Origin: a virus
Reading direction: 5' to 3' (one strand)
Virus record (IMG/VR): IMGVR_UViG_3300006868_002106
Coordinates: 1 to 20,687 of that record
DNA length: 20,687 bases
Made by a program: the position numbers and the translations under genes. Below the pieces are notes generated by a model. That model had not been told where the DNA came from. It worked only from the letters and a program-made list of their open reading frames with translations, and searched no databases. This document shows, in pieces, positions 1,498 through 17,759 of this stretch. Position 1 is the stretch's first letter, and the number at the start of each line of letters is the position of its first letter.

Positions 1498-2082
1498 ATG
1501 AGCGGTGGTGGCGGCGGCGGAAAACCCGAAGAGTTAGAGAGCAAGAAAGCCCTAGCTGAACAGGCGGCTATATCTTTACAGCGTTACGGTCAAATCTTTG
1601 TTCCGCTAGAAAACTCCTACATTCAAAGCACTCTTAACCAGTTTAGCGAGCAGGCTTATCAGAACCCTATGGGTCAGGCGGCTACTCAAGCGGCAGGTGT
1701 TTATGAAACAGGAATGGCTGACTTCCAAAACGCGGCAATGATGCAACGCGGACTAGATCCCTCTATGGGCGCCTATCAAAACGAGTCAGCGGCTCTTCGA
1801 GCGGCTCAGGCTCGAGGCGTAGGTCAGGCCATGTCAGACGCAGGTCTGAGCAACACAGATCAGGCTTATCAAGGTCTAGCAAATATCGTGAAGATGGGCC
1901 AAGGGCTTGCTACCGACACTATGCAGGGCCAGATGGAGCTTGCTCAGAATCAGATGGATCGAGTGACAGCTCAAGCACAGCGTGATTTTGGCGCTTCCAG
2001 CAGTTTAAGAAATCTTGCCGGAACTGTGACTGGAACTGGCGCAGGTGCCGCTTTCGGTTTGAATAAGAATTACGGGGGCTAG
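1498..2082 (+). CDS. Helical virion protein, probable internal/ejection protein
   Basis: 194 residues beginning MSGGGGGG, followed by almost entirely helical, Ala/Gln-rich sequence (ALAEQAAISLQRYGQ; QNAAMMQRGLDPS; TQAAGVYETG). Composition and length fit the small internal proteins of podoviruses that leave the head with the DNA (T7 gp14-like or P22 gp7/gp20-like), but no catalytic motif is visible. An AGGTGA ribosome site lies just before the ATG. A motif YGQIFVPLENSYIQS near residues 29-43 recurs in altered form in the next gene (YLTRFAPIENFLASE), suggesting that the two are relatives. Ends 2 bases before the next ATG. Function inferred from context. Confidence 0.6.
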   Translation: MSGGGGGGKPEELESKKALAEQAAISLQRYGQIFVPLENSYIQSTLNQFSEQAYQNPMGQAATQAAGVYETGMADFQNAAMMQRGLDPSMGAYQNESAALRAAQARGVGQAMSDAGLSNTDQAYQGLANIVKMGQGLATDTMQGQMELAQNQMDRVTAQAQRDFGASSSLRNLAGTVTGTGAGAAFGLNKNYGG

Positions 2083-2630: not shown

Positions 2631-3344
2631 ATGGCGATTATTGGCACTGGATTTGGCTTGCGTCAGAGGGCGCAGGAAGGCATGTCGGCAGTTGCAAAAC
2701 TGGAGGCTCAAGAAAACCAGCAACGCATGGCTTTAGAACAGGCCAGACAAGCTCAGCAAATGCAGATGTACGGAACCTTTGGTGGTATCGGCGCCTCTGT
2801 TGGTACGCCAAAAGCTATAGCGGCTTACAAGGCGGCAACAGCAGGTAGCGCGATCCCAGCGGCTCCTACAGGATTTGTTTCGCCAACAGGCGGGATGGCC
2901 GGAATGGCTAAAGCATCAAACGCAACTGCCGCATTGAGAGACGTGCCTGCCGTTACAGGTAACGCGGCTCAAGGATTCTTATCTCCGCAGGGTGGTGGAG
3001 GAGCATTGGCTCAATCAGCAAATGCAGTCAAAGACGCAAAGGTTATTACTGACGCAGGTACCGCAGTTAAGGCGGCGGCTGATGCCAAGGTTGCTGGAGA
3101 TGCAGTTGTTGCGGCTAACGCGGCTGGTGCAGGTGCAGGTGCCGCAGGTGCAGGTGCCGCAGGTGCAGGTGCCGCAGGTGCAGGTGCCGCAGGTGCAGGT
3201 GCCGCTGGCGCTGGTGCCGCTGGTGCTGGTGCCGCCGCAGGCGGATCAGCCGCATCTGGAATACTTGCCGGTGTAGGTGCTTTAGCGGCACCAGTAGCCA
3301 TAGGGCTTGGTGTGGCGTTCTTGCTCAACAAGCTATTCGATTAA
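2631..3344 (+). CDS. Ala/Gly-repeat protein with C-terminal membrane segment, probable ejection/channel protein
   Basis: 237 residues. Residues ~8-50 form a Gln/Ala-rich helix (VAKLEAQENQQRMALEQARQ). The middle is low-complexity. Residues ~165-202 are a tandem GAGAA array. The end (ASGILAGVGALAAPVAIGLG and VAFLLNKLFD) is a hydrophobic stretch long enough to cross a membrane, with Lys-Leu-Phe-Asp at the tip. A helical start, flexible glycine-alanine linker and C-terminal membrane anchor in the internal-protein block suggest a part of the trans-envelope DNA channel, but this is inferred. Its ATG directly follows the upstream TAA, with GGTGGG as ribosome site. A membrane-anchored structural protein of another kind cannot be excluded. 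Confidence 0.6.
   Translation: MAIIGTGFGLRQRAQEGMSAVAKLEAQENQQRMALEQARQAQQMQMYGTFGGIGASVGTPKAIAAYKAATAGSAIPAAPTGFVSPTGGMAGMAKASNATAALRDVPAVTGNAAQGFLSPQGGGGALAQSANAVKDAKVITDAGTAVKAAADAKVAGDAVVAANAAGAGAGAAGAGAAGAGAAGAGAAGAGAAGAGAAGAGAAAGGSAASGILAGVGALAAPVAIGLGVAFLLNKLFD
3129..3233 (+). repeat. 15-bp tandem repeat encoding (AGAGA)n, 7 units
   Basis: Unit GCAGGTGCAGGTGCC occurs five times without change (3129-3203), followed by two diverged units with GCT/GGC codons (3204-3233). The unit is a multiple of 3, so copy number can change without breaking the frame. It encodes an Ala-Gly linker in the 237-residue protein and explains the stop-free shadow frames on both strands here. Confidence 0.95.
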
Positions 3345-4910: not shown

Positions 4911-4926
4911 CTCATAGGAGTTTTTG

Positions 4927-7900
4927 ATGCCACTAGTATCCTATGATGATGACGAATCATTGGACCTGTTTCTCGAGAGACAGAGACGAGAGCAACGCCG
5001 GCTAGAGCGTGAAGAAAGAGCTTCTGCGTCTCAAGAAATTGAGCAGTTAGATGAGCCTGAAGAGGAAGACTACAGCCAATTTGGCCGTGGCATTCGGGCG
5101 GGTATCGATCAGACCCAAGGTCTTGGCGGCGGTCTAAAGGCTCTCGCCGGCTCTGTTCTGGGAAAGGAGGACTGGGTACGTGATGGTCTTGCATACTACA
5201 ACGAGAAGATGGCCGAAGCTGACGAGATCGGCGGTGACTTCCAGCGCGTTGAAGATATTGAAAGCTTTGGCGACGCTCTTGATTATGGCTTGTTTACCCT
5301 TGGTACTCTTGTTCCTGACCTTATTGGCGGCGGTGGAGCTGGCCTTCTCGTCAAGGCTGGCGTAAAGAAAGCTGTCAAGAATCAAGTTCAAGACGCTGTA
5401 GAAGCGAGGGTCCAGCAAGCCGTAGCAGACGGAGCAGTCGCAACATCAAACAAGATCGCTCTTAAAAAGATTCGAAAAGAGTACGAAGATCAAGCCCTTG
5501 GAAAGATCCCCCAAAGAGCGGCAATAGCTGGCGCTGGAGCATACAGCGTTGCTCTTAACTCCGCAGAAAACTTCACTGAAATTGAGGCAGAAACGGGCAA
5601 GTTAGATCCTGTTGCGGCGCTCACTGTGGGTGTTGCTCAGGGCGCTCTGGATTCCATTGGCATACCAATGAGAGCCTTCAAAAAACTGTACCCAGACAAG
5701 TCTCCAGAGGGAATCAGAACCGGTATTGCGGAACAGATCAACGACAACAGAAGCGCAGTAAGAAGAATCATCACAGAGGCAACGAAAACCGCAGGTGTTG
5801 AAGGCGGTGTTGAGGCCATGCAAGAAGTGATGGGTCGAGCCGCTGTTGCTTGGGCAAATGAAAGTTTGCCTGAGTCTGAGCAACAGGAATTCTTTGAGAT
5901 AATGGCGGGCGAAAATGCTCGCTCTTTGTACCTCAACAGCTTTGTAGCCGGAGGCATCGGTGGCGGAGTGATTGGTGGCTCTTTAGGCGCACTACCACCC
6001 TTCGATCCAGCCGAATACGACAACACTCTTGGCAAGATGGTTGATGCTAAGCGAGCCGCAAAAAATGCGGCGGCGGAAACAGATAACACCCCCCAAGAAC
6101 AGACTGTTGATCTTGGTGAAATGCCAATGGATCAAGAGTCCACGTCTGTTTATATGGGAGACATGCCTATAGCACTGCAAGAGCAGGTAATGGCAGATGG
6201 ATTCGAGGATGACATCGCGCCGATTGAGGCTGTCAGAGAGGCGGTTACTAAGCTTGATGGTATCGAACAGCAACGAGCTAAAAATGCCCTGAACAGACTA
6301 GGTCTAAATCAGCAGAAGAGAATTAAAGTCCAGCCTGAAAAGGAGGTTGCAGAGCAGGTCCGATACGAAGGTCCAATCTTCGCCACATCGACGCCAATGT
6401 CTATGAACGAAAAGGCTGATGAGCTACGAGGGCAAGAGACTGCTGGTGCTAAAAAGAAACAGATCGAAGGGGATGATGACTTTACCCCTGAAAGCTTGAG
6501 CATAGGCAGGATTCTTCAAACACAAGGCAAGTCACGTCTTGGCGATCCTTCAATGGACAGCAAGTCTGGAGATGAAAAGGTTATTCTGCGTCCAATCGCT
6601 GACGCAATTTCAGAAAGCCAGACCAGCGCTGATTCAGATGCACCAGTTGCGCCAATGCAAGAGGAGCTTGCTTCGGTTGTTCTAGATCTTTTGGATAGAG
6701 GTATGCCTCGCCAGCACGTTGAGGCGCTTCGCGGCACATATGCGCTTGATGGTGACATCGACATCTTTGATGACGCAGTGGCCGCATACTTCCCAGAAAA
6801 TGAGTCGATAGCAGTAAAGCCTGAGATCCTCGAGGAGGCGCTTCAGGACGAAGAAACAGCTAGACAGCTTCGCTACTACATGTCACATGAAATGTGGCAT
6901 ATCGCTGACGACAAGAACGGCTACACCCTAAATCTGCCAGATCTAGAGATGACGTTCGAGGACACTGATGGAGACGGCATACCTGACCTGCGGGTTGGCG
7001 ACGCTGTTGCGGAATTGTACGAGCAGTGGGATCAGGAGACTCAACTAGGTAAGGGGTTCGGTTATCCGTTTAACTATCTAGAGCAAGACCTGCTGGCCGC
7101 CACACCAGAAGATAGACCCAACATTTTACGAGCGGCACAGCGAGAAGTGTTCGCTCAGCTAGGTGCTGTATACCTAGCAAATCCAAGGCTGTTAAAGCAA
7201 AATGCTCCTAACGCATACAGATTGATCAAGGCGCTACGTGACAATGCGTCACAGACCGCAGAGGATATCGTCCGTGAAGACAATCAAACTCAAGACGAAG
7301 CAGTTTCCACCCAACCTTCAGGCATATCTGGAGAAGTTCGGGCACCCCCCATCGAAGGAAGCCCAGAAGTTCAAGACACTGACGGAGCTGGACAAGATGG
7401 CGGAGTTAGCCCTGAGGCGGGGCAAGCCGATCCGCAACTGGGAGAACAGACCGAAGATCAAGACGGGGACGAGGCTGGACGACTTCTACGGCAACAGGTA
7501 GTTGACTTCGTATCCTCGCAGGGCGAGGTTCAGGGTGTTTCCCCGATACAGCTAGAGCTTCGTCAGGGTTACAACCCAACCGTTGAGCTTATAGACGAGA
7601 TGCTTTCAATGGGCATGCTCGAAGAAAATATAGGCAGTGACGGGTCGCCTTCTTACACCGTACCGCAAACTCAACAGCCTGCTCCTGAACCTCGGCAAGA
7701 TGCTGAGACTGCGTCAGGGGAACCTCGAGTACCCGTTACGTTACGTGCAACAAGTAAAAAGCCTACATTCAATAAGGCTGTTAACTGGGATCAGACCGGC
7801 GAATACATCGTAACCTTCGAGGACGGAGATCGTTACACGCTCTACTTCGATGATGATGCATCTGAAGCTGGGGGTGATGTTAACTTTGAGTCGATTGACG

Positions 7901-10900
7901 GGAAGGTTACTGATCTTGGAGACATGCTTGGAACGACCAAGCAAGAAGCCATTAACTCTTTGATCGATCATCGACAGAAGTTAATTGACGCCGGACAGGA
8001 CTCCTATAACGTGCCTCTGAATCCTGAGGTAGGTAGTGAGATTGTTTTCAAGGCGTTCGATTTTATCGATCAAAAATCTCCAGTGACAGAGAAACAGCTT
8101 CGCGCAAAATTTAAGTCACTAGAAGACAATCAGTTTGAAAATCTCAAGAAGCAACTTACCGACGAGCAACAAGACGAAGAAAGCCAGATTCTTGTAGAGG
8201 ACGGCAAGTACGTGTCTTATGGCTACCTTCAGGAACGGGATGCACCTGAAGATCCAGCCTTTGCTCGCAAGCAGGTGCCAATCTCTAACGCTGTAGAGCG
8301 GTCAAAGACCAAATACGCTGAGTACTCTAGCGCTTTAGAAGAGGAGTTCTTTGGTAACTTCTGGCCTCGAATGATGGAAGAGGTTGGAGGGACGGTAACC
8401 CCTGACAAAATTAGAACTGCCGCGAAACGCGCAGTCAAAGACATCGACGGGTGGGTCAAAGAGAATCCGAAGTACAACAACTACTACAATGAGGACATGG
8501 CCGCTGTTCGAGGAGCTTTAGAAGATCACTTTGGCTCAGTGACAGATGACGATCTATTGTTCTTCCAAGTGGCTAACGGATTGACGTCACCTGCAACACA
8601 GTTACGCTCGAACGTAGGCGATGCTGTCCGCGTACTTGACCTGTTCAAGAGAGAGGGAAACCTCGACTCTATTGTTATGGGCAAGAGTCAGAAAGGTAAC
8701 GCGATCATATCGTCTAGCCCTATCTCGATATCCGGCACAACCGGCCCAACCAAAGCCAGAAGCCTCAAGGTATTTGATCGCTTGATCAAAGAGAAAGGCG
8801 GTGTACGACAGGCCGTCGATTTCTTGAAGGAAGGCGTCACAGCAAAAGAGTTGCAAGCCTTCAACAGAGAGATGGGCTACGTCAGTAACGTCCCCAACAT
8901 CCCGTCGATCAGGTCACTGGTCGAGCAGGCAACCGGACAAGACGAGTTGATACCAAGGTTCTTTATCTTCAACAAGAAGATTGGCGCCTACACTATGAAC
9001 CTGTCAGGTGACCCACGCTACACGACTATTGACGTGTGGGAGTCGCGATTTATTCGAAGCTACTTCGACGGTCTGTTCCAAGAGAACACTGGCTTGCCCA
9101 TGAATGTTGCGGAAGACCAGCTATTCCAAGAATTCTCTACGCTGTTCAAGGAGGAGTTCGACAAGACAACTGGACTATCTGCTGACCCATCAACTTTACA
9201 AGCTATGCGTTGGTTCTATATGATCAATGCGGCTAGGGAAGCAGGCTACAGAGGAGCCTCTACCAATGAAACAATCTCAGAAATCACAGTTGACCAACTC
9301 CAAAGACTTGGAGGCGGCGGCAATGAAAGCCGGCGAAGCGGCAATGAAGCGGCTCCTTCTCAAGATGAAAGCCAACCGCAGTTCGCAAGGAACCCTTCCT
9401 ACAAAAGCGAAGACGCCAGAACAATAGCTCTTAGGGATACGGCTCGTGAAAACGAAAACATCCCTTACCACGATTCAGTCAGTGAGCTTGAAGAAGAAAG
9501 CCGTTTCTGGATAGACGAGCTTGAGGTCAGTCCAAGATTTAAGAGGCTACTTAAGGCGCTAGAGCGTGAAGACTACTTAGGTTTTGACACAGTAGATCAA
9601 GCACTAGGATCGCTGTTCAAGGATGTAGATCCTGTCGAAAACTTCGATGTATCTCCCGCCTTCAAGACAGCGCTTGGCAGATACGTTAACGAAGTTACCG
9701 GATTTATTGACGATAGTCCTCAGTTTATCCGTGTACCTCAGCCTGATAACAGCGACGTTAGCTTCAACCTGAATGACGACTTCTCTGTCGATAAGAGCGT
9801 AGAGTCGCGCCTCAAGAAGGTGATGCCCAAGACGGTCACTAGAAAGTTAAGTGACCGACTGGAGCGATTGAAGGATCTCGAGAACAGGTTTGCAGAGTTC
9901 CTTGGCTTGGATAGATTGCCTTCGGTCTTCTCTGCTTATGACAACGAAAACCTGATGCACTCAAAAGTCCAGAAGCAGTTGGAAGATTTTGAGAAAGCGC
10001 ATGTTGTTCCTATCGCTGAGCTAATCAGGGATTCTGATCTTGAGTTGGATCAGGTTGGCTTGTACTTGCTGGCTAAACACGCGCCAGAACGTAATGCCAA
10101 GATAGCTCAGCAGGAGCGAGAGCTTCGAGATCTTCAGATCGAGATTGTTAGGGATGAGATAGATAGCTTTAGTGGCGACAACGACGCAGAGCTTGCACGT
10201 CTCCAAAGAAAGCTTGAGATCCTAGAAACCGCTCCTCTCAAGTATCAAGAGAAAGGTTCCGGTATGACCGATGAGGAGGCGCAAGCCACCATCGAGCTTG
10301 CCGAAAACGAGGGTCGATCTCAGGAACTCGAACAGGTTGCTGAGCGAGTCTATGCCATGCTGTCAGAGATGAGGCAGAACATGGTTGAACAGGGCTTGCT
10401 GGACAACAAGACCAAGGAGGACTGGCAGGACACCTATCAGTTCTACGTTCCCCTCAAGGGCTTTGCGGCGTTCCCAGAAGGTCTTGAGATGAAGGGCGGT
10501 AGTGGCACTCAGGGCTTCAGCATCAAGGGATCAGAAAGCTTCAAGGCCAAGGGTCGTGTAACACTACCGGTCAATCCGTTGACTGTGTCGTTCAAGGACG
10601 CAGAGGAAAAAATTGTTCGGGCGGAAAAAAATAGAACCGCCCAAAAACTCCTCAAGATGTTTGAAAAGTTCCAGTCACCTGATAACTGGAGGGTGTACAA
10701 CCAGAAGGTACGACCACCTCGTGACGACAACCCTGCTGAGATGAAGAGTAATCAGGAGATGCGTTCTGAGCGCAGGGCTGACGACGGTCTACCTAGATAC
10801 ATAGAGGTCAAGCGTCGAGGCAAGTCGTTCTTCATCGAGGTTAGAGATCAGGAGTTGAATCGTCAGTTGCAGAGTGGCGGCGTAGGCATGTTCAACAATC

Positions 10901-12648
10901 AAGTTGACTTCATGAACCGAGCGCTGACCGTCATGCAGGAGTTCCAGAACTTCAGGCGCAACATGCTTATTAACTACAACCCAAGCTGGGGTTTGGTTAA
11001 CCCACTGCGTGACGTGCAGACGGGCTTGGCGTTTGCTATTTCTGAGCTTGATGCAAAAGGCGGTCGATTAGAGGGCAAGTTTGGAAGCGCCACTGATCTT
11101 GTATACAAGGTTAGTAAGTCTTATGTGCCTTCTTTGAGGGCATACTGGCGACAAGCTAGAGACACTGAAGGTAAGACAGAAGAGGCTAGAGAATACGATA
11201 AGTTTGCTCGTGAATATGTAGAGGATGGAGCGCCTACCGGATTGTCCATCGCTAAGTCTCTTGAAGAGCAACAGAAGCGATTCGAAAACATCATGGGCCA
11301 GACAGCTAAGGCTAGAGGCATCAACAAGATGCGGCCCTTCTTTGACTTTGTAGAAGACTTAAATCAAACAACAGAGAATGCGGCCCGCCTAGCTACCTAC
11401 ATCGAAGCCAGAAGAGCTGGCGTTGATCGAGCTGATGCGGCAACCCTAGCGAAAGACTTGACCGTTAACTTCAACAGAAAGGGCGAGTACAGTTCGGCAA
11501 TTGATAGCCTGTATCTGTTCTTCAATGCGGCTATTCAGGGCAACGTCAACATCATCAAAGCCCTTACTCGCGGTAAGAAAGAGGGTGGCGTTAGCAAAGC
11601 TCAAACTCTGGCGGCAAGCATGGTTATGTTCGGGTTTGCTCGAACACTGGCTAACATACAGATGGCCGGCGAAGACGATGACGGTGAGTCTAACTACGTT
11701 GACTACAACGAGTACGTGATGAAGACGTCTATGGTCTTTACTGACGGTCGGCAAGGCTACGCAATGCCAATGCCATATGGCTACGGACTGCTAGACAACA
11801 TAGGCCGTTTCGGTGCTGAAATGGTCATGGGTATCAAGACGCCAGAGCAGGTGGCTGTTGATCTCGCGACATCTGTTGATCATCACTTCAACCCCATGAG
11901 CTTGCATGCCACAGGGAACGATAGAGAGCTAATCGAAAGCGCGATGCTGAAAGGGATGTTCTTCTTGAGTCCAGACCTCGGTGACCTTGGCATTGAATTG
12001 GTTTCGAACATTAACTTCTTCGGCTCCGATATTGCGATCAGGCAAAACCCATTGTTTGTGCAGAAGCCTGACGCTTACGCAAGCAAGCGTGGAACCAACG
12101 AAGTGATGAAGTCGATAGCTGAATTCATGAATGATTTGACTGGCGGCAGTGAATACCGAAGTGGATGGGGGGACTTTAGCCCAGAAAGGGCGATGCACAT
12201 CTACGAGTTCTTGATGGGTGGTGTTGGCCGATTCTTAGATGATTCCTCTGACACTATTATGAAGTTGAAATCAGAGGAACCAGATTTACTGCCAAAAGAC
12301 GTTCCCATCCTGCGTACCTTTATGCCTATGGCGAGCGAGTACTCAGACAGAATTTCGTTCTACGAAAGCCGTGCTGAGTTCTTGCAGTACAGGAGAGAGT
12401 TCAAAGAAAGCAACAGAGCGGATCAGATTGCCTTACAGAGACGTTTCGGACCTAAGCTGTATCAGTTTGAGCTAACCCATAAAGCCGTAGAGAAGAAGCT
12501 GAGAGAGCTTAGGAAGCAAAAGAAAGCCCTTTACGATGACAAGGTGATCGACTCGATGATTCGATGGAAGCGACTGCAAGCAATCGCAGAAGCTGAAGAG
12601 AAGCTGTTCGACGAGTACAACAAAAGATTTGACGCGGTGAAACCGTAA
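4927..12648 (+). CDS. Giant 2573-residue polyvalent/internal virion protein with HExxH protease-like domain
   Basis: Start taken as ATG 4927 (TAGGAG six bases upstream); the TTG at 4924 is not needed. The N-terminus is charged (RQRREQRRLEREERASASQE). Residues ~190-360 are Ala/Gly-rich and hydrophobic (AAIAGAGAYSVALNSAENF; VAGGIGGGVIGGSLGAL), typical of proteins that enter membranes. H654-E-M-W-H658 is a zincin-type HExxH motif in an MSHEMWHIAD context, followed by the Asp-rich loop DTDGDGIPDL (679-688) and a helix REVFAQLGAVYLANPRLL. Residues ~1319-1437 form a compact domain (KKIGAYTMNLSG; TTIDVWESRFIRSY). Asp/Gln/Gly-rich linkers lie near 775-860 and 1458-1485. Residues ~2015-2573 (NPLRDVQTGLAFAISELD; DLTVNFNRKGEYSSAID; KDVPILRTFMPMASEYSDR) resemble the large polyvalent protein associated domains of phages and conjugative elements. 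Probably ejected with the DNA. Third zinc ligand not identified. Confidence 0.85.
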   Translation: MPLVSYDDDESLDLFLERQRREQRRLEREERASASQEIEQLDEPEEEDYSQFGRGIRAGIDQTQGLGGGLKALAGSVLGKEDWVRDGLAYYNEKMAEADEIGGDFQRVEDIESFGDALDYGLFTLGTLVPDLIGGGGAGLLVKAGVKKAVKNQVQDAVEARVQQAVADGAVATSNKIALKKIRKEYEDQALGKIPQRAAIAGAGAYSVALNSAENFTEIEAETGKLDPVAALTVGVAQGALDSIGIPMRAFKKLYPDKSPEGIRTGIAEQINDNRSAVRRIITEATKTAGVEGGVEAMQEVMGRAAVAWANESLPESEQQEFFEIMAGENARSLYLNSFVAGGIGGGVIGGSLGALPPFDPAEYDNTLGKMVDAKRAAKNAAAETDNTPQEQTVDLGEMPMDQESTSVYMGDMPIALQEQVMADGFEDDIAPIEAVREAVTKLDGIEQQRAKNALNRLGLNQQKRIKVQPEKEVAEQVRYEGPIFATSTPMSMNEKADELRGQETAGAKKKQIEGDDDFTPESLSIGRILQTQGKSRLGDPSMDSKSGDEKVILRPIADAISESQTSADSDAPVAPMQEELASVVLDLLDRGMPRQHVEALRGTYALDGDIDIFDDAVAAYFPENESIAVKPEILEEALQDEETARQLRYYMSHEMWHIADDKNGYTLNLPDLEMTFEDTDGDGIPDLRVGDAVAELYEQWDQETQLGKGFGYPFNYLEQDLLAATPEDRPNILRAAQREVFAQLGAVYLANPRLLKQNAPNAYRLIKALRDNASQTAEDIVREDNQTQDEAVSTQPSGISGEVRAPPIEGSPEVQDTDGAGQDGGVSPEAGQADPQLGEQTEDQDGDEAGRLLRQQVVDFVSSQGEVQGVSPIQLELRQGYNPTVELIDEMLSMGMLEENIGSDGSPSYTVPQTQQPAPEPRQDAETASGEPRVPVTLRATSKKPTFNKAVNWDQTGEYIVTFEDGDRYTLYFDDDASEAGGDVNFESIDGKVTDLGDMLGTTKQEAINSLIDHRQKLIDAGQDSYNVPLNPEVGSEIVFKAFDFIDQKSPVTEKQLRAKFKSLEDNQFENLKKQLTDEQQDEESQILVEDGKYVSYGYLQERDAPEDPAFARKQVPISNAVERSKTKYAEYSSALEEEFFGNFWPRMMEEVGGTVTPDKIRTAAKRAVKDIDGWVKENPKYNNYYNEDMAAVRGALEDHFGSVTDDDLLFFQVANGLTSPATQLRSNVGDAVRVLDLFKREGNLDSIVMGKSQKGNAIISSSPISISGTTGPTKARSLKVFDRLIKEKGGVRQAVDFLKEGVTAKELQAFNREMGYVSNVPNIPSIRSLVEQATGQDELIPRFFIFNKKIGAYTMNLSGDPRYTTIDVWESRFIRSYFDGLFQENTGLPMNVAEDQLFQEFSTLFKEEFDKTTGLSADPSTLQAMRWFYMINAAREAGYRGASTNETISEITVDQLQRLGGGGNESRRSGNEAAPSQDESQPQFARNPSYKSEDARTIALRDTARENENIPYHDSVSELEEESRFWIDELEVSPRFKRLLKALEREDYLGFDTVDQALGSLFKDVDPVENFDVSPAFKTALGRYVNEVTGFIDDSPQFIRVPQPDNSDVSFNLNDDFSVDKSVESRLKKVMPKTVTRKLSDRLERLKDLENRFAEFLGLDRLPSVFSAYDNENLMHSKVQKQLEDFEKAHVVPIAELIRDSDLELDQVGLYLLAKHAPERNAKIAQQERELRDLQIEIVRDEIDSFSGDNDAELARLQRKLEILETAPLKYQEKGSGMTDEEAQATIELAENEGRSQELEQVAERVYAMLSEMRQNMVEQGLLDNKTKEDWQDTYQFYVPLKGFAAFPEGLEMKGGSGTQGFSIKGSESFKAKGRVTLPVNPLTVSFKDAEEKIVRAEKNRTAQKLLKMFEKFQSPDNWRVYNQKVRPPRDDNPAEMKSNQEMRSERRADDGLPRYIEVKRRGKSFFIEVRDQELNRQLQSGGVGMFNNQVDFMNRALTVMQEFQNFRRNMLINYNPSWGLVNPLRDVQTGLAFAISELDAKGGRLEGKFGSATDLVYKVSKSYVPSLRAYWRQARDTEGKTEEAREYDKFAREYVEDGAPTGLSIAKSLEEQQKRFENIMGQTAKARGINKMRPFFDFVEDLNQTTENAARLATYIEARRAGVDRADAATLAKDLTVNFNRKGEYSSAIDSLYLFFNAAIQGNVNIIKALTRGKKEGGVSKAQTLAASMVMFGFARTLANIQMAGEDDDGESNYVDYNEYVMKTSMVFTDGRQGYAMPMPYGYGLLDNIGRFGAEMVMGIKTPEQVAVDLATSVDHHFNPMSLHATGNDRELIESAMLKGMFFLSPDLGDLGIELVSNINFFGSDIAIRQNPLFVQKPDAYASKRGTNEVMKSIAEFMNDLTGGSEYRSGWGDFSPERAMHIYEFLMGGVGRFLDDSSDTIMKLKSEEPDLLPKDVPILRTFMPMASEYSDRISFYESRAEFLQYRREFKESNRADQIALQRRFGPKLYQFELTHKAVEKKLRELRKQKKALYDDKVIDSMIRWKRLQAIAEAEEKLFDEYNKRFDAVKP

Positions 12649-13250: not shown

Positions 13251-14135
13251 CTACCCCCTTAACATGCCTACAATCCGGTTTGCCGCCTGCTTCTTGTGAG
13301 CATTGTTCATGTGGGTGTAGCGCAGAAGCGAGTTCATCGACTTCCATCCCCCAATATCCATCAGCTCACGAGCATCAGTGCCAGCCTGTAGATGCCACGT
13401 TGCGAACGAGTGTCGCAATGTGTGGAAGGTTGTGCCGGCTGGTAGTCCAGCTAAGTCCACCGCCTTCCGCCAAGTCTTATTACCGACCGCATCTCTACTG
13501 AACGGCTTGCCGTTTTCCTGAACAAACACGCAGTCAATCTTCCCTCGAAGGAATGGTCTTCGCTTGATTAACTCCTCTTGATAGCGCTCCCTCTTTCGGA
13601 GGATTGCTTTGGCATCATCGTTAAGGGGAACAATCAACCGCTCACCGTTCTTTGTTTCGGAAGACGCGAACGTCATCAGTTCTCCGCACCTGCTTATCTG
13701 TGACCAGCGCAGGGTTCGCACATTATTGTTGCGTTGACCGCAAGCCAATGCGAACTCCACCATGTCAGCCCGAAGCGGGTCGAGCCATCTGATTAACGAT
13801 CTGACTTGATCAGGCTCTAAGTAAAGCTCCTTCATTTCTTCTGGCAACGTCTTGATCGTTGGCACCGTCTCGACGATCTCTAACTCATCTCTGGCGTAAT
13901 TCAGAATCAGCCTAAGGTACTTGAGGTACGTGTTGACAGAGGCGTTACTAAGTCCCTTTCCATAAAGTAACTCTTCCTTCAGGTCATTGATGTCAACTCG
14001 ACGAATGGACTTAACACTACGGTTACCCCATCTATCGATCAAGCTCCTGATCGCCGCCTGTGCGCTTCGACTTTTGTTGTTGCCTCGTTTTGTTTTTAAT
14101 TTTAGGTAACGCTCTGCTACATCTCTGAACTTCAT
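13251..14135 (-). CDS. int: Tyrosine site-specific integrase
   Basis: 294 residues using ATG 14135, chosen because ACGGAGAG lies 8 bases upstream; the longer frame starting at 14174 has no such site. The N-terminal SAM-like core-binding region (residues ~1-95, MKFRDVAERYLKLKTKRGNN) is followed by the catalytic domain. Visible active-site residues are R135 (GQRNNNVRTLRW), K162 (ETKNGER), H238-R241-H242 (FHTLRHSFATW), W264 (IGGWKS) and nucleophile Y273 (LLRYTHM), the complete set for the family. It recombines the adjacent attP with the host tRNA-Gly gene and also takes part in excision. No recognisable excisionase is nearby. A leftward terminator and a start-codon hairpin precede it, so expression is likely restrained. 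Confidence 0.97.
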   Translation of the reverse strand: MKFRDVAERYLKLKTKRGNNKSRSAQAAIRSLIDRWGNRSVKSIRRVDINDLKEELLYGKGLSNASVNTYLKYLRLILNYARDELEIVETVPTIKTLPEEMKELYLEPDQVRSLIRWLDPLRADMVEFALACGQRNNNVRTLRWSQISRCGELMTFASSETKNGERLIVPLNDDAKAILRKRERYQEELIKRRPFLRGKIDCVFVQENGKPFSRDAVGNKTWRKAVDLAGLPAGTTFHTLRHSFATWHLQAGTDARELMDIGGWKSMNSLLRYTHMNNAHKKQAANRIVGMLRG

Positions 14136-14156
14136 AAATACTCTCCGTGTATGAAG
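14130..14156 (-). promoter_or_regulatory. Integrase leader: GGA-containing hairpin that pairs the start codon
   Basis: On the minus strand CTTCAT (14156-14151) is the exact inverse of ATGAAG (14135-14130), which holds the start codon. Between them lies ACACGGA (14150-14144), the ribosome site. An alternative inner stem ATAC/GTAT puts ACGGAGA in a 7-base loop. Either fold could hide the start. GGA in a loop over the ribosome site is the usual form of a CsrA target. Confidence 0.5.
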
Positions 14157-14182
14157 CCCCTCACAGCAGTCCAAGTCTAACT

Positions 14183-14225
14183 AAAAAAGGGGGAGTTTTC
14201 GACGATCTATGTCTACTCGTCCCCC
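14183..14225 (-). terminator. Leftward rho-independent terminator between recombination operon and integrase
   Basis: On the minus strand GGGGGA (14225-14220) pairs with TCCCCC (14194-14189) and is followed by six T (14188-14183). An inner GACGA/TCGTC pair can stabilise it. It would stop most leftward transcription before the integrase, which starts 48 bases further on. Confidence 0.75.
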
Positions 14226-14233
14226 AAGCAAGG

Positions 14234-14309
14234 AACCTCTCACTGGGAGGGTGGCGCGTCGTGCCAACCGGTGCGCCAAGCCGGTAAGGAAACCCAAACG
14301 GGCCTTGGC
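14234..14309. other. GC-rich, multi-hairpin non-coding segment
   Basis: Three successive stems are visible: CCTC/GAGG (14236-14239, 14247-14250), GGCGC/GCGCC (14253-14257, 14273-14277) and GCCAAG/CTTGGC (14275-14280, 14304-14309) enclosing CCC/GGG. The second and third overlap at three bases and so are alternatives. The last arm touches the stop codon of the 86-residue gene. No reading frame of note. It could be a structured 3' end or a small RNA. Confidence 0.4.
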
Positions 14310-14569
14310 TAATTAATGGTACCAGAATCTTCGCTAATGACTTCTGCCTCTTCTACTTCATCAGTAGCGGGAAGGGGTTCCGGCAGTAGTTTTTTAGCGT
14401 CTGATAAGATTGCATCAGCACCTGCTCTCGCCGACTCGATCAGCGGTGCAAGCACTGAAATGCTTTGGTTAGTTTGCTGAACGAGTACCAGCATGTTCCG
14501 GCATCGCTCAGATATGTCTTCGGCGTTATAAGATTTGCCGTCGATGATGATGGTTTGTACTTCGCTCAT
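14309..14569 (-). CDS. Small phage protein, DUF6447-like
   Basis: 86 residues. The opening TIIIDGKSYNAEDISERCRN resembles the short phage family DUF6447 (pattern 'TI.IDGK.Y...DLS'), followed by a helix with Gln-Gln (VLVQQTNQSISVLAPLIES) and an acidic, probably disordered tail (EVEEAEVISEDSG). The function of that family is unknown to me. Its ATG overlaps the stop of the CsrA-like gene as ATGA (14566-14569), so translation is coupled. It is the last gene before the leftward terminator. Family assignment is by recollection of the motif and should be treated as tentative. Confidence 0.6.
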   Translation of the reverse strand: MSEVQTIIIDGKSYNAEDISERCRNMLVLVQQTNQSISVLAPLIESARAGADAILSDAKKLLPEPLPATDEVEEAEVISEDSGTIN

Positions 14570-14964
14570 TGTTTACGTTTCCTCGTGTTTTCGCGAATGA
14601 CTTGATATCTCCTTGGTGCTTTGACCAAGATTTGAGCTTGAGGGACGCTCTTTCTTTGAGCGGGATCTCCCCGTCCGCACACCTCACAGTGGTCATCGTT
14701 CCCATAAAAATAGGTCTGTATGCCCACCATTTGGATAGATACTGATGAAGACAAACGAGAAGGTTTGTCCCCAACAGTGAGAACAAGGTCTGTCATGCCC
14801 TCCTTGTTCGTGATTGTTACGAAGCAATCTTGCGCTCCATCGTGATCTCGGACTCTTCGTACCCACATCTTGTGATCGTAAGTCTCTTCAGGGTTCTCTG
14901 GATCGAGCTTCTCCCCTCCGTAGAGGAGAGAACCGACTGCTCGTGTAAGTCTTAAACCGCCCAT
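14566..14964 (-). CDS. CsrA/RsmA-like RNA-binding protein with two insertions
   Basis: 132 residues, about twice the usual ~60 of CsrA. Residues 4-17 (LRLTRAVGSLLYGG) match the CsrA start LILTRRVGETLMIG. Residues 75-83 (VSIQMVGIQ) match its VTVTVLGVK strand. Residues 109-126 (QAQILVKAPRRYQVIREN) match QVRIGVNAPKEVAVHREE without gaps. The counterparts of the RNA-contact residues L4, R6, V42 and R44 are L6, R8, V122 and R124. Two extra segments separate these blocks: ~57 residues (18-74) and ~25 residues (84-108), the latter with a CEVC pair that could bind metal only with outside ligands. CsrA dimers bind ANGGA motifs over ribosome sites. Start ATG 14964 has TAAGG 8 bases upstream. Fourth gene of the recombination operon (annealing protein, exonuclease, SSB-like, this). 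The fold is likely; RNA binding is inferred. Confidence 0.75.
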   Translation of the reverse strand: MGGLRLTRAVGSLLYGGEKLDPENPEETYDHKMWVRRVRDHDGAQDCFVTITNKEGMTDLVLTVGDKPSRLSSSVSIQMVGIQTYFYGNDDHCEVCGRGDPAQRKSVPQAQILVKAPRRYQVIRENTRKRKQ

Positions 14965-14972
14965 AAATAACC

Positions 14973-15368
14973 TTAGAAGGGGATGTCATCCTCTGGCAGG
15001 TCGTCCTGCACAGGAGCCGGCGCAGGTGAAGGCGCAGGCCTTGCAGGCTTGTTAGGGAGCCAGAACTCGACATTGAGTTGAGTGACTTCGCCGTCTCGCT
15101 TTTGCTCAGCCACTTCGAGGTTGTAACGGAAGGCTTGACCTCCGTTCATGTCGAGAGTGCTTTGCAACTTGTCGATCATTTCTTGATCGATCTTGAGCCA
15201 GCCGTCGAAACTTGGAATCTTTAGAGCTTGCTGTTCTTTCCCAAGCTCTTGGAACCAGCCGTACTGCTTGAGTTTGTTGTACTTCTCAAGCTTCTTCTCT
15301 CGATCTAGCGGGTAAAGGCGCCCCTTACCAGCATTGATTGCCTCAAAGGCGGTAGGTTTGTTCTGCAT
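14973..15368 (-). CDS. Putative ssDNA-binding protein with SSB-type acidic C-terminal tip
   Basis: 131 residues ending in DDLPEDDIPF; the last five residues equal the C-terminal tip of bacterial SSB, which recruits replication and repair proteins. A Pro/Ala linker (NKPARPAPSPAPAPVQ) precedes it, as in SSB. The N-terminal ~100 residues do not show a classic SSB OB-fold signature but have strand-rich segments (ALKIPSFDGWLKID; AFRYNLEVAEQKRDG; TQLNVEFWLP). Its ATG overlaps the exonuclease stop by one base (TAATG), with CGGAG as ribosome site. Standing next to an annealing protein and an exonuclease, an ssDNA-binding role fits. An SSB-tip mimic that recruits host proteins is the alternative. Confidence 0.7.
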   Translation of the reverse strand: MQNKPTAFEAINAGKGRLYPLDREKKLEKYNKLKQYGWFQELGKEQQALKIPSFDGWLKIDQEMIDKLQSTLDMNGGQAFRYNLEVAEQKRDGEVTQLNVEFWLPNKPARPAPSPAPAPVQDDLPEDDIPF

Positions 15369-16402
15369 TAGTTGTCTCCGATTGTCTTGATTGATGATTG
15401 CAGTGAATTGTTCGTGCGACGGAAAGTGTCGAGCGAACTGTCTTTCTCAAGCAGGGCTTGTTCCCCGCCCAGAAATTCAAAAGCCCTTCGATAATCAACC
15501 GGAGGTGTTTTTTGAATCACTTGTATGGACACCCATCCATTGGTGATGGACCGCTCATACTTTTTAACTAGCTCTTTCTTGAGGGAATCACGGTGTGACT
15601 TCAGCTCCTCAAGCTCAGCAAGCGCCGTGTGGTTCAGCACTTCGATCTCATTGATCTTTCCCTGTACATCCGCCAGCTCTGTGAGCTGAGCGTCTTCGAT
15701 CTCCTCGTAGTCAGGCACGAGAGGATCAAGATGCTTTTGCGCCCGCACTGGATCTGCGGCCTCTTCTTGGATGAAGTCGTACCAAGCCTTGTAAAGATCC
15801 AGTCGAGTGACCTTACCCTTGCTTGGCTCTGGCAGTAGGCGACCGTCTAGCTCCTCATCAAGCCAGTCCCAGTTGCGCTGTACTCTGTCGATATGCCACT
15901 GACCTTCGGCCTGAGGATCTTTTGCGAGATAGCACATGAAGTCGCACCAATCGAGATCGCAGACCTCCATGACCATGTAGCACTGCCACAAGTACATGAT
16001 TCGCTTTTCATCAAAGACTGAGTAAGGCGCCTTGGTCCACTTAGGATAGGGACACTTGAACTCACAACCACCCTCGATGCCCACAAGCCCGTCGGGTGAC
16101 GCGGCTAGGAACGTATGCTCTTGATGGGTCACCATGCCAGTTTCTTCGACGCGATAGCGCTTGATCTCTTCCAGCTTGACGCGGGCGTACTCTTCCATCA
16201 TCGAGCCATGCTCAACGGCGGCATTGGTTTGAAACTCAGACTCGGCACCTAGAATCGCTCTCACCTCTTGGCGAACAAGATCCTGAACACTCATGTAGGG
16301 GTGGATGCCTTCGTATGCGGCGCACACACTAGCTTTGATTTTTCCTGCCCGTGCTTTGAGCCACCCCTCAGATCCCTGAGGATGCATTTCGAGGAACGTC
16401 AT
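15368..16402 (-). CDS. YqaJ-type (lambda-exonuclease-like) viral recombination exonuclease
   Basis: 344 residues from ATG 16402, preferred because it forms an ATGA overlap with the upstream stop; a GTG at 16411 would add three residues. Family motifs in order: QGSEGWLKARAGKIKAS near residue 10, EHGSMMEEYA (E64, E70/E71), SPDGLVG (D104), GCEFKCP (E114, K116) and YLWQCYMVMEV (Q140). The D-(10)-E-x-K spacing is that of the lambda exonuclease/YqaJ nuclease core, so it should degrade 5' strands of double-stranded ends using Mg2+. The C-terminal ~130 residues add a helical coiled region (KINEIEVLNHTALAELEELK). It works with the annealing protein encoded just upstream in phage recombination. Confidence 0.93.
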   Translation of the reverse strand: MTFLEMHPQGSEGWLKARAGKIKASVCAAYEGIHPYMSVQDLVRQEVRAILGAESEFQTNAAVEHGSMMEEYARVKLEEIKRYRVEETGMVTHQEHTFLAASPDGLVGIEGGCEFKCPYPKWTKAPYSVFDEKRIMYLWQCYMVMEVCDLDWCDFMCYLAKDPQAEGQWHIDRVQRNWDWLDEELDGRLLPEPSKGKVTRLDLYKAWYDFIQEEAADPVRAQKHLDPLVPDYEEIEDAQLTELADVQGKINEIEVLNHTALAELEELKSHRDSLKKELVKKYERSITNGWVSIQVIQKTPPVDYRRAFEFLGGEQALLEKDSSLDTFRRTNNSLQSSIKTIGDN

Positions 16403-17061
16403 ACCTTCCACCCTTTCTTATCGCAGATCTCAGCCCATCGGTTCTGGTTGTAATCCTCCAGACCCAACTGGGTTAGCTTGCGATTGAAGCGGTCAAAGAT
16501 TTTTTGAGCGGCGCTCTTGTTGCGGGACTGCTGTATCTTTTCCCACGTATCTTCACGCCATAGCCGCTCTACCCGATCTCGTGTTGCTTCCTCCACAACA
16601 ATCTGCTCGTCAGGAAGTAGCTCTTCCTGAACTGCTTCAGCGGCAACCTCCTCTTGGGCTTTCGACTTAATCCAGAGCTGATGGCCCAGACCAAACTCAG
16701 CCATCGCCTTTACACGACAGCGTTGCTTTGTAGTGTTGATCTGTCCACTGTTTGGGTTGCGGATGGGGCCGGAGAAATCTCTAACAAAGAGAGAGGTAAT
16801 TTGCGTATGAGGCCCGATGGTCATGCGGCATCTAACTTCAGCCGTGCCGTCGTTGAAGTAGTGTACTTCCCTGCCCTCAGGATCTTCGGTGAACTCCCAA
16901 GTGTATTCAGGAAATGATTCCATCATGAGAGCGTGAGCGTTCATCCACGGCAAGATGCTTAGAGACGTTCCGTCTTCTAGAACTTCTTTTTCCGTGAGCT
17001 GATCGGAAATATCTATTGCAGAAAGCCGAGTCCAGATAGACTCTTTGGTGAGCTGATCCAT
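16399..17061 (-). CDS. Single-strand annealing protein, DUF1071/Sak3-like
   Basis: 220 residues. INTTKQRCRVKAMAEFGLGH (residues 108-127) is the hallmark core of the DUF1071 annealing proteins (usual form 'IN.A.QRC..KA.A..GLG'), preceded by SILPWMNAHALMMESFPEY, the family's start motif, and by strands VRCRMTIGPHT and ITSLFVRDF. The C-terminal third is acidic then basic and helical (RDRVERLWREDTWEKIQQSR), perhaps a partner-binding tail. It should coat 3' strands produced by the neighbouring exonuclease and pair complementary strands. Start ATG 17061 has ACACGGAAG 8 bases upstream. First gene of the coupled recombination set, 63 bases after the 51-residue gene. Confidence 0.88.
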   Translation of the reverse strand: MDQLTKESIWTRLSAIDISDQLTEKEVLEDGTSLSILPWMNAHALMMESFPEYTWEFTEDPEGREVHYFNDGTAEVRCRMTIGPHTQITSLFVRDFSGPIRNPNSGQINTTKQRCRVKAMAEFGLGHQLWIKSKAQEEVAAEAVQEELLPDEQIVVEEATRDRVERLWREDTWEKIQQSRNKSAAQKIFDRFNRKLTQLGLEDYNQNRWAEICDKKGWKV

Positions 17062-17069
17062 GTGTATCT

Positions 17070-17107
17070 TCCGTGTAATTCATCCCTGTAATTACACTAA
17101 AATTACA
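17070..17107 (-). promoter_or_regulatory. Leader of the annealing protein: hairpin with CsrA-consensus loop plus ACACGGA at the ribosome site; also a palindromic operator candidate
   Basis: On the minus strand GTGTAATT (17097-17090) pairs with AATTACAC (17080-17073) around the 9-base loop ACAGGGATG. The loop with its closing U reads UACAGGGAUG, identical to the middle ten bases of the CsrA SELEX consensus RUACARGGAUGU. ACACGGA (17076-17070) follows, over the ribosome site. At the DNA level TGTAATTACA (17087-17096) is a perfect palindrome, with more TGTAATT half sites at 17074-17080 and (inverted) 17101-17107, so a protein operator is also possible. A weak promoter (TTGAAA at 17128-17123) would start inside the hairpin. 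Confidence 0.6.
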
Positions 17108-17124
17108 TCAGCTAAATGATAATT

Positions 17125-17280
17125 TCAACACTCAGATTTGTTTTTAGACGCTAATACTTCTAGAGTTTTCGCAAATTCTTCATCGGTCGGCTCGCAATCG
17201 CCATCAGTTTTCACTTTTTTGTAGAGTGCGGCTCTAAGCACGGCGATAAACTCGGCGTTACTCAGTCGGTGTTTTCTCAT
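17125..17280 (-). CDS. 51-residue basic protein, unknown function
   Basis: MRKHRLSNAEFIAVLRAALY followed by a Lys/Asp/Glu-rich helical end (PTDEEFAKTLEVLASKNKSEC). ATG 17280 has AAGGGAAG just upstream, and the gene overlaps the 3' end of the repressor-like gene by 23 bases in another frame, so translation is probably coupled. It is short, basic at its start and probably all-helical. Small proteins in this place can be excisionases, antirepressors or regulators, but nothing in the sequence decides. It fills what would otherwise be a gap between the repressor and the recombination genes. Confidence 0.65.
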   Translation of the reverse strand: MRKHRLSNAEFIAVLRAALYKKVKTDGDCEPTDEEFAKTLEVLASKNKSEC

Positions 17281-17692
17281 TTGCGCTTCCCTTAAAGAAT
17301 CTTCGGAGATTTTTCATGAAAGCTTCCATGTTTTTATCATCCTCGAAACCAATTAAAACCAATACTGAAAGTTGCTCTGCTGACAAATCAATTCCGTATT
17401 CGTCTTCAAAATTTTTACATCTAACCAATAAAGTTGTGAGCTGTTTTTCCGTTATGTTTAGCCCACGGCTTTCTCCGTTTACCCACTGATATAAGTCTAT
17501 ATCGAAGATATCGCAGAATTTTATAGCCATATCTAAATTCTTTGGCAGTGACCCCTCCAGCCAAGCGGCGGCACTTGCATTAGAGCATTTGATTCTGTTT
17601 TTTATATATGACGCTCTGCCCCATCTAGCGATTCCCTTTTTATCAAACTCTTTATTGAGGAAATCGGCGCGGGTTTCTTTGTCCCAAGCCAT
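17258..17692 (-). CDS. HTH transcription regulator, probable lysogeny repressor
   Basis: 144 residues. Residues ~24-62 form a helix-turn-helix region of the lambda-repressor-like type (GRASYIKNRIKCSNASAAAW, then LEGSLPKNLDMAIKFCDIF), followed by DLYQWVNGE, common in phage and Vibrio-type regulators. The C-terminal half (LTTLLVRCKNFEDEYGIDLS; AEQLSVLVLIG) is helical and probably dimerising. There is no S24/LexA-type Ala-Gly cleavage site or Ser-Lys pair, so RecA-triggered self-cleavage is not expected. It is divergent from the replication genes with a shared control region. Start ATG 17692 has ACACGGA 9 bases upstream. A Cro-type or CII-type regulator is the alternative. Confidence 0.75.
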   Translation of the reverse strand: MAWDKETRADFLNKEFDKKGIARWGRASYIKNRIKCSNASAAAWLEGSLPKNLDMAIKFCDIFDIDLYQWVNGESRGLNITEKQLTTLLVRCKNFEDEYGIDLSAEQLSVLVLIGFEDDKNMEAFMKNLRRFFKGSANEKTPTE

Positions 17693-17708
17693 AAATACTA
17701 ATCCGTGT
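17693..17708 (-). promoter_or_regulatory. Repressor leader with ACACGGA over the ribosome site
   Basis: On the minus strand ACACGGA (17708-17702) lies 9 bases before ATG 17692. The segment AGTATTTATG leading into the start is identical to that of the integrase leader, so the two leaders look related. It provides the ribosome site and is a candidate target of the phage CsrA-like protein. Confidence 0.55.
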
Positions 17709-17719
17709 GATAGAGGATC

Positions 17720-17748
17720 TTTTTAACCGACTAAAGATATTTTGTCCA
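17720..17748 (-). promoter_or_regulatory. Leftward promoter for repressor and downstream genes
   Basis: On the minus strand TGGACA (17748-17743) is followed after exactly 17 bases by TAAAAA (17725-17720), giving 5/6 and 4/6 matches to sigma-70 boxes. Start of transcription would fall near 17713, leaving a ~20-base leader that contains the ACACGGA site. Confidence 0.5.
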
Positions 17749-17759
17749 TAGGTTGACAA
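17742..17759. promoter_or_regulatory. Candidate repressor operator at the divergent switch
   Basis: TTGTC (17742-17746) and GACAA (17755-17759) are an inverted pair with 8 bases between. The site covers the -35 boxes of both predicted divergent promoters, the position expected for the operator of the adjacent HTH protein. Only one such site is evident. Confidence 0.45.

What the first reader, a model, noticed from the sequence alone, without database searches (positions are those of the whole stretch)
4927..12648. A giant 2573-residue protein with an HEMWH zincin motif inside a probable ejected polyvalent protein
One gene fills over a third of the window. It combines a Gly/Ala-rich membrane-active-looking N-terminus, an HExxH motif with a nearby Asp-rich loop, an unassigned central domain (TTIDVWESRF) and C-terminal regions like polyvalent-protein domains. 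Such proteins are thought to enter the cell with the DNA and act against host defences. The protease-like domain and the central domain have no known target.
Basis: partly seen in the sequence, partly recalled or inferred. Interest (0 to 1): 0.55.

Follow-up and report, generated by a model that had tools for sequence, protein, structure and literature searches.

The report
Giant phage protein with DNA-enzyme cargo
This phage gene makes one very large protein that is probably carried in the virus particle and injected; it joins a likely self-cutting protease-type part to a swappable part that has the fold of DNA-repair enzymes, a cargo that we found assigned nowhere.

Summary
In detail: ATG 4927 to 12648 encodes 2573 aa with one HExxH (H654/E655/H658; chance expectation 0.007). 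It is a phage polyvalent protein: LPD38 passes its Pfam cut-off, and the last ~920 aa are homologous to giant proteins of Vibrio, Stx-type and Bcep22-like phages; one of the last (JC1 gp69) was found in purified virions. The HEMWH part is best read as a zincin of the lethal-factor/Pro-Pro-endopeptidase type, E740 being the likely third metal ligand: the known polyvalent 'MPTase', proposed to process the protein itself. The model behind this is weak (pLDDT 48), though its structural matches are uniform. The Asp-rich loop is not in the conserved site and the N-terminus has no strongly hydrophobic segment.

The new result is the unassigned central domain (aa ~1106-1465). It models well (pLDDT 87); its 45 best VIA-align rows are all DNA-glycosylase-fold enzymes; it is a distant relative of Pfam DUF7178. 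Lys1351 and Asp1369 are invariant, spaced as in endonuclease III types. It is swappable cargo: near-homolog L006 has a different domain there, and the two domains are fused or neighbours in other phages. It had no tblastn match in 50,697 phage records. Its activity is inferred, not shown.

The parts
4927..12648 (+). giant polyvalent protein gene, 2573 aa, ATG start with AGGAG at 4916-4920
5227..6126 (+). aa 101-400, Gly/Ala-rich N-terminal region (27% G+A); aa 1-400 are 70-73% identical in L004/L006; no strongly hydrophobic segment
6649..7251 (+). aa ~575-775, zincin domain of lethal-factor/PPEP type (polyvalent MPTase)
6886..6900 (+). HEMWH, H654 E655 H658
6961..6987 (+). Asp-rich loop D679-D687 (DTDGDGIPD), not kept in L059
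7144..7146 (+). E740 in EVFAQLGA, inferred third metal ligand, on a separate predicted helix
7339..7374 (+). aa 805-816 RAPPIEGSPEVQ in the linker after the zincin; speculative self-cleavage site
7492..7638 (+). aa 856-904, FtsK-gamma-like winged helix (below Pfam cut-off)
7702..8226 (+). aa 926-1100, insertion absent from L004 and L006, present in L003, no match in phage records
8242..9321 (+). aa 1106-1465, central domain, HhH-GPD (DNA glycosylase) fold, DUF7178-related; swappable cargo
8977..8979 (+). K1351, invariant in 23 of 23, candidate catalytic Lys
9031..9033 (+). D1369, invariant in 23 of 23, candidate catalytic Asp
9841..12606 (+). aa ~1639-2560, conserved C-terminal region shared with giant proteins of Vibrio, Stx-type, Ruegeria and Burkholderia phages
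11692..12309 (+). LPD38, aa 2256-2461
1498..2082 (+). virion-type neighbour (PHROG 611 / 8003; 27% identical over 128 columns to a DC1 virion structural protein)

Best explanation
It is a phage polyvalent protein built as chassis plus cargo. The ~920-aa C-terminal region with LPD38 is the constant part and probably places the protein in the virion for ejection (inferred from homology to a virion-detected protein). A lethal-factor/PPEP-type zincin (H654, E655, H658, E740) probably cuts the polypeptide itself, in the particle or after entry, to free its parts (inferred). An FtsK-gamma-like winged helix is followed by a swappable slot for DNA-acting cargo. In this phage the slot holds a DUF7178-related domain of the HhH-GPD fold with an invariant Lys/Asp pair, most likely a DNA glycosylase or glycosylase/AP-lyase-like enzyme that works on a modified or damaged base in phage or host DNA at the start of infection. 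Shown here: the gene, domain borders, fold assignments, conservation and the swap. Inferred: ejection, self-cleavage, base excision and its target.
For: LPD38 over its cut-off. aa 1641-2561 homologous to the end of DC1 giant gp67, E 5e-45; the related JC1 gp69 was found in CsCl-purified virions with 51 unique peptides (PMC9144972, passages). Zincin: 4 of 4 aligned sequences keep HExWH and EVFAQLGA, one of them at 28% identity; rows 1-46 of VIA-align on its model are zincin or lethal-factor-type domains (1pwv Z 9.1, rmsd 3.8, 151 aligned; PPEP-1 6r52 Z 7.0, rmsd 3.7, 116 aligned), unrelated rows from Z 3.0. Central domain: pLDDT 87.2, pTM 0.84; VIA-align rows 1-45 are glycosylase-fold enzymes (3knt Z 10.1, rmsd 4.2, 192 aligned), unrelated from Z 4.8. 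DUF7178 is hit by 17 of 23 members, no other family by more than 2. Profile score against DUF7178 26.9, above 60 of 60 column shuffles (max 22.7). The Lys-Asp spacing of 18 equals that in fetched endonuclease III-type sequences such as L093. Central domain 82% identical in aa to L004 with third positions of conserved codons only 47% identical. L006 has another domain in the slot.
Against: The zincin AF2 model is poor (pLDDT 48.3, 4 sequences) and Foldseek alone gave nothing significant for it. Foldseek against PDB gave no significant match for the central domain either (best glycosylase row prob 0.47, E 0.51). The window domain misses the DUF7178 cut-off (15.9 of 27 bits); hhalign probability to DUF7178 is only 5.2%, and to endonuclease III/MutY-type sequences under 1%. 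Among the matched folds phage PUGT is a base-modifying transferase and DUF2419 a queuosine enzyme, so the fold does not fix the reaction. Two of three neighbours compared show no BLASTP similarity to their positional counterparts in DC1. I had no virion proteomics of this virus.
Confidence: 0.58

Rival explanations
1. The central domain has the HhH-GPD fold but is a DNA base-modifying transferase (like phage PUGT) or a nucleoside-type hydrolase (like DUF2419), not a glycosylase acting on damaged or modified DNA.
For: PUGT 8z2m Z 7.8 (rmsd 5.0, 215 aligned) and DUF2419 7ugk Z 9.7 (rmsd 4.2, 225 aligned) are among the best fold matches; rows that differ by under 1 Z are tied.
Against: Such work is done during replication or salvage and would not need a virion-type protein (inference); the Lys-Asp spacing of 18 is that of endonuclease III-type sequences.
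Confidence: 0.2
2. The central domain is a catalytically dead HhH-type DNA-binding module that holds the incoming DNA.
For: Enzymes of this fold bind DNA (established knowledge); the domain follows a winged-helix-like module.
Against: K1351, D1369, W1371, E1372, R1374 and R1377 are invariant in 23 of 23 relatives down to 27% identity, more than binding alone would be expected to need.
Confidence: 0.15
3. The zincin is an effector that cleaves a host protein rather than the polyvalent protein itself.
For: PMC5512222 (passages) leaves this open for polyvalent MPTases.
Against: The same paper argues for self-processing, with P1 DdrB as a cleaved example; a Pro-Pro pair kept in the linker after the zincin in 3 of 3 close homologs fits self-cutting, though this is speculative.
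Confidence: 0.3
4. The protein is a purely structural internal virion protein or acts late in the cell, and its enzyme-like domains are relics.
For: Position among late genes and a conserved C-terminal region.
Against: The central domain is as constrained as the C-terminus (82% and 83% aa identity to L004) and keeps active-site-type residues.
Confidence: 0.1

Closest known systems
Phage polyvalent proteins (Iyer et al. 2017, PMC5512222; passages read)
   Same: Giant multidomain protein near virion genes, LPD38, zincin MPTase, DNA-binding module
   Different: Carries a HhH-GPD/DUF7178-type domain; 'glycosylase' and 'base excision' do not occur in that paper's main text
Bcep22-like (Lessievirus) 'DarB-like antirestriction' giant protein, e.g. 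DC1 gp67 and JC1 gp69
   Same: C-terminal ~900 aa homologous (24% identity, E 5e-45); same place after tail-fibre and virion genes
   Different: No convincing match outside the C-terminal region; no helicase or methylase model in the window protein in Pfam at E up to 1 except a chance-level DExH14 plug hit (E 0.43)
Giant protein of Sepvirinae/Stx-type podoviruses (PHROG 616; phage phi367)
   Same: C-terminal homology (28.8% identity), and an integrase, exonuclease and annealing protein downstream on the other strand
   Different: No match to the zincin or central domain in phage records
Pfam DUF7178 (PF23802), e.g. Streptomyces phage Dagobah, mycobacteriophage Pio gp109
   Same: Motifs SP..N, KxGxF/Y, IDxW or VDxH, QAxxW in the same order by eye; 17 of 23 members hit it weakly
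   Different: Below the family cut-off; larger, and fused into a giant protein
8-oxoguanine DNA glycosylases of the HhH-GPD fold (MjaOgg 3knt, SsOgg, AGOG, OGG1)
   Same: Fold (Z 10.1, rmsd 4.2, 192 aligned for 3knt)
   Different: About 9% sequence identity; additional N-terminal helices outside the aligned range; activity unknown
Lethal factor / Pro-Pro endopeptidase zincins
   Same: Predicted fold and HExxH plus a downstream Glu
   Different: 82 residues between H658 and E740, with the Asp-rich loop and YPFN motif in between; part of a phage polyvalent protein

Membership tests
Phage polyvalent protein | Several unrelated domains in one polypeptide, including a polyvalent-type domain | tested here: met
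   LPD38 over cut-off; zincin-type and HhH-GPD-type domains by fold
Phage polyvalent protein | Coded among virion/late genes | tested here: met
   PHROG 610, 611/8003, 596 and a weak tail-protein match upstream; same place as in DC1
Phage polyvalent protein | Packaged and injected | not testable with these tools
   Only by homology: JC1 gp69 in virions (PMC9144972)
Zincin MPTase (lethal-factor/PPEP type) | HExxH on one helix and a Glu on a following helix | tested here: met
   H654/E655/H658 on predicted helix 642-664, E740 on predicted helix 730-751, all kept in 4 of 4
Zincin MPTase (lethal-factor/PPEP type) | Fold with a three-stranded sheet before the active helix | tested here: inconclusive
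   Uniform fold matches but model pLDDT 48.3 with few strands resolved
Zincin MPTase (lethal-factor/PPEP type) | Pfam ATLF family score | tested here: not met
   11.4 bits against 27.4
Zincin MPTase (lethal-factor/PPEP type) | Proteolytic activity | not testable with these tools
   needs an assay
HhH-GPD fold superfamily | Fold | tested here: met
   VIA-align rows 1-45, Z 10.1 to 5.8, unrelated from 4.8
HhH-GPD fold superfamily | Pfam HhH-GPD model or sequence similarity | tested here: not met
   PF00730 not among the families listed for members of A4 (25 of 26 families shown); hhalign to endonuclease III/MutY types under 1% probability
HhH-GPD fold superfamily | Catalytic Lys and Asp | tested here: inconclusive
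   K1351 and D1369 invariant in 23 of 23; that they are the catalytic pair is inferred from spacing and motif, not from a superposition
HhH-GPD fold superfamily | Base excision | not testable with these tools
   needs an assay
DUF7178 (PF23802) | Gathering score 27 bits | tested here: not met
   15.9 bits in the window domain; 0 of 2 genomes holding the domain over cut-off
DarB-like antirestriction protein | Helicase/methylase domains | tested here: not met
   No such Pfam domain (only a chance-level DExH14 plug hit at E 0.43); significant homology is limited to the C-terminal region

The most novel reading that the evidence does not exclude
Phages deliver, inside the particle, a DNA glycosylase-type enzyme as one of several interchangeable cargoes of a giant injected protein; a Pro-Pro-cutting zincin in the same chain frees it after entry (perhaps in RAPPIEG, aa 805-811), and it removes a modified or damaged base from host or incoming DNA together with the recurrent HDxFGH partner domain. 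That would be a new class of injected phage effector acting on DNA bases.
Probability: 0.2. Interest if true: 0.78.

Novelty: new variant of a known kind. Interest (0 to 1): 0.52.

Why it matters
It gives a fold and a testable active site to a conserved cargo domain that was unassigned, in viruses known mainly from metagenomes; it shows that the cargo slot of these proteins is swapped as a unit; and it links two phage families of unknown function (DUF7178 and the HDxFGH domain) that occur near each other in phages of laboratory hosts, where the function can be tested directly.

Tried and rejected
Sequence searches of solved structures with the central and zincin profiles gave nothing significant apart from the FtsK-gamma winged helix (2j5p, E 0.0033). 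hhalign of the central domain against 21 endonuclease III/MutY-type sequences was not significant; these were 21 of 30 loci fetched, 9 being dropped because my motif filter did not find them. I looked for Ogg-HhH (PF22175) members for a closer profile and found none in 96 genomes; DUF7178 members in 288 genomes of the same group gave one sub-cut-off match. Scans for more zincin relatives gave only L059 beyond the close group. A regular-expression test of the ordered motif was poor: the strict form hit 14 of 23 central domains and 4 of 11 DUF7178 sequences, the loose form 0 of 23 and 5 of 11, so I do not use it as evidence. The Asp-rich loop as a metal site and a membrane-active N-terminus were rejected. 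Positional counterparts in DC1: one of three neighbours tested was similar (E 2e-6). In the DUF7178 alignment some rows are near-duplicates (L118, L120), and L115, L119 and L122 were left out as short or duplicate. The central profile against Pio-type sequences alone was at the level of shuffles (14.5; shuffle mean 14.0, max 20.5 of 40). Central-domain relatives for the model were 23 chosen out of 35 loci listed, leaving out near-duplicates.

Literature: 'DUF7178' 0 papers; 'polyvalent protein' with 'glycosylase' and 'phage' 2 papers (of PMC7824862 I saw passages, of PMC7159879 the listing only), nothing seen on such a fusion; HhH-GPD with phage, glycosylase and hypermodif 0; two wider searches gave listings with nothing on the point; PaMx11 with glycinyltransferase 0. 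Only the open PMC library was searched.

Full report
1. Observation. The window is a 20,687-base virus record. The gene runs from ATG 4927 (AGGAG at 4916-4920) to 12648 on the + strand and codes for 2573 aa without interruption. HEMWH is H654-H658, the only HExxH, against 0.007 expected. Pfam gives one family over its cut-off, LPD38 at aa 2256-2461 (85.7 bits, cut-off 27). PHROGs 14770, 616 and 10691, all giant proteins of unknown function, match about aa 1620-2568.

2. Relatives. IMG/VR gave 21 loci encoding relatives. L004 and L005 are full-length homologs (79% over aa 1108-2573, 57% over 1-952); L006 is 78% identical at the C-terminus and 71% over aa 1-393; L003 is a fragment at 91%. In the phage collection 127 of 50,697 records match, all below 60% identity and, in the rows listed, only in the C-terminal region: Vibrio 101, Burkholderia 8, Escherichia 7, Stx 6, and 5 others. 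The zincin domain, the central domain and the region aa 921-1107 have no tblastn match there.

3. C-terminal chassis and ejection. aa 1641-2561 align with the last ~880 residues of the 4650-aa DC1 gp67 (24% identity, E 5e-45), annotated 'DarB-like antirestriction' and placed after tail-fibre and virion genes. In phage JC1 the DarB-like gp69 (4515 aa) was found by proteomics in CsCl-purified virions with 51 unique peptides (PMC9144972, passages read); JC1 itself was not in my comparisons. Of three neighbours compared with DC1, only the gene at 1498 was similar (E 2e-6); the 518-aa gene and the gene at 1086 were not. Phage phi367 (Sepvirinae) has a similar order downstream: giant gene, then integrase, exonuclease and annealing protein on the other strand (for the window). 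Packaging and ejection are thus well founded by homology but not shown for this virus.

4. Zincin. Beyond the close group only L059 (28-29% identity) was found. It keeps H654, E655, W657, H658, the YPFN motif and EVFAQLGA, hence E740; the Asp-rich loop is not kept. The AF2 model from 4 sequences is weak (pLDDT 48.3, pTM 0.47); the HExxH helix (aa 642-664) and the E740 helix (730-751) are its best parts, at about 70-75. Foldseek alone found nothing significant. VIA-align on Foldseek's highest 813 chains gave zincin or lethal-factor-type domains in rows 1-46: lethal factor (1pwv Z 9.1, rmsd 3.8, 151 aligned), edema factor's related domain (6uzb), PPEP-1 (6r52 Z 7.0, rmsd 3.7, 116 aligned), PPEP-2 and -3, a metal-dependent hydrolase 3khi (5.4) and leukotriene A4 hydrolase (4.0); unrelated rows start at 3.0. 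Many of these rows are repeats of one protein, and the top rows match the N-terminal domain of lethal factor rather than its catalytic one (4dv8, Z 6.9, rmsd 6.9, 144 aligned). Pfam ATLF is hit below cut-off in 2 of 4 members (best E 0.26). Iyer et al. describe the same layout for polyvalent MPTases, linked them to lethal factor, and propose self-processing, with other possibilities left open (PMC5512222, passages). The window protein has three Pro-Pro pairs; that at 807-808 lies in the linker just after the zincin in RAPPIEGSPEVQ and is kept in L004 and L006; 1930 is kept too, 357 is not. A cut at 807-808 is my speculation, based on the recalled Pro-Pro specificity of PPEPs.

5. Winged helix. 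aa 856-904 resemble FtsK-gamma: Pfam E 0.00081, but 19.5 bits against a cut-off of 30.6, and PDB 2j5p E 0.0033 by profile.

6. Central domain. It was found in 33 viral loci, the window virus's own included, and in two Verrucomicrobia single-cell contigs. In most of these proteins little else aligns to the window protein by BLASTP, so it is a module. Across 23 members down to 27% identity, K1351, D1369, W1371, E1372, R1374, F1375 and R1377 are invariant. AF2 from 23 sequences gives pLDDT 87.2, pTM 0.84. Foldseek against PDB is not significant. VIA-align on Foldseek's top 1000 chains: 3knt MjaOgg Z 10.1 (rmsd 4.2, 192 aligned), DUF2419 queuine enzyme 9.7 (4.2, 225), SsOgg 9.0 (4.5, 195), PUGT 7.8 (5.0, 215), AGOG 7.7 (4.0, 194), then 3-methyladenine glycosylase, MutY and OGG1 down to 5.8 at row 45; chaperonins from 4.8. 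The tool warns that helical models often reach middling Z, so the weight lies on the uniformity and the gap, not on Z alone. In the viral structure library 11 entries match at E 0.001 or less, several annotated as polyvalent proteins, and an Endonuclease III of Halogranum tailed virus 1 appears at probability 0.94.

7. Link to DUF7178. It is hit weakly by 17 of 23 members (best E 0.0056), the next families by 2 each. Members over the cut-off lie in Streptomyces phage Dagobah (243.6 bits) and in mycobacteriophage Pio gp109 (40.3 bits). hhalign of the central profile with 11 DUF7178 sequences scores 26.9 (probability 5.2%, E 0.0075), above 60 of 60 column shuffles (max 22.7); DUF7178 with 21 endonuclease III/MutY-type sequences scores 23.7, aligning the Lys and the VDxH Asp, above 100 of 100 shuffles (max 22.3). 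The direct comparison of the central domain with the endonuclease III types is not significant (19.7 and 16.0 in the two orders). The Lys-Asp spacing is 18 in the window domain and in fetched sequences such as L093. Sequence evidence is thus suggestive in steps, and the fold carries the claim.

8. Cargo swap and partner. L006, close to the window protein on both sides, lacks the central domain (no profile match in its record) and has there a ~300-aa domain with HDAFGH. That domain occurs in 200 phage records, 187 of Mycobacterium. In L035, L036 and L037 it follows the central domain in the same protein; in Pio the DUF7178 gene gp109 and the HDxFGH gene gp110 are neighbours; in Dagobah they are 2.3 kb apart. 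The two domains therefore look like functional partners (inference). Other central-domain proteins carry a zeta-toxin domain (L008) or a sub-cut-off ART-PolyVal match (L017).

9. Selection. Window against L004: central domain 82.4% aa identity with third positions of conserved codons 47% identical, the C-terminal region (aa 1621-2250) 83.0%, the zincin 58.2%. The central domain is under strong constraint.

10. Verdict. A phage polyvalent protein of known kind, with a known protease type and a newly assigned DNA-glycosylase-fold cargo. The function of the cargo is inferred. Interest 0.52.

Noticed in passing
L096:879-4077 (phage Pio gp109, gp110) and Dagobah record 42195-45568: A DUF7178 gene and an HDxFGH gene are neighbours in mycobacteriophage Pio and 2.3 kb apart in Streptomyces phage Dagobah; in L035-L037 the related domains are in one protein.
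   Followed up: partly
L008:4668-12962: Giant protein with the central domain plus a Zeta_toxin domain (aa 1582-1732, E 1e-15) and a sub-cut-off ASCH domain.
   Followed up: no
window 7702-8226: aa 926-1100 is an insertion of unknown kind, absent in L004/L006, 94% identical in L003, no match in phage records.
   Followed up: partly
L003 against window 11692-12309: LPD38 region only 80% identical in DNA while the regions on either side are 89-92%: perhaps a recombination patch.
   Followed up: no
window 2631-3344: Protein with a long Gly-Ala-Gly-Ala-Ala repeat tract.
   Followed up: no
window 13251-20359: Integrase, RecE-like exonuclease, Sak-like annealing protein, O-like initiator and primase/helicase: probably a temperate phage with Sepvirinae-like gene order.
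   Followed up: partly
L060, L061: Phage-like regions with the central domain in Verrucomicrobia single-cell genomes, a possible host lead for some of these viruses.
   Followed up: no
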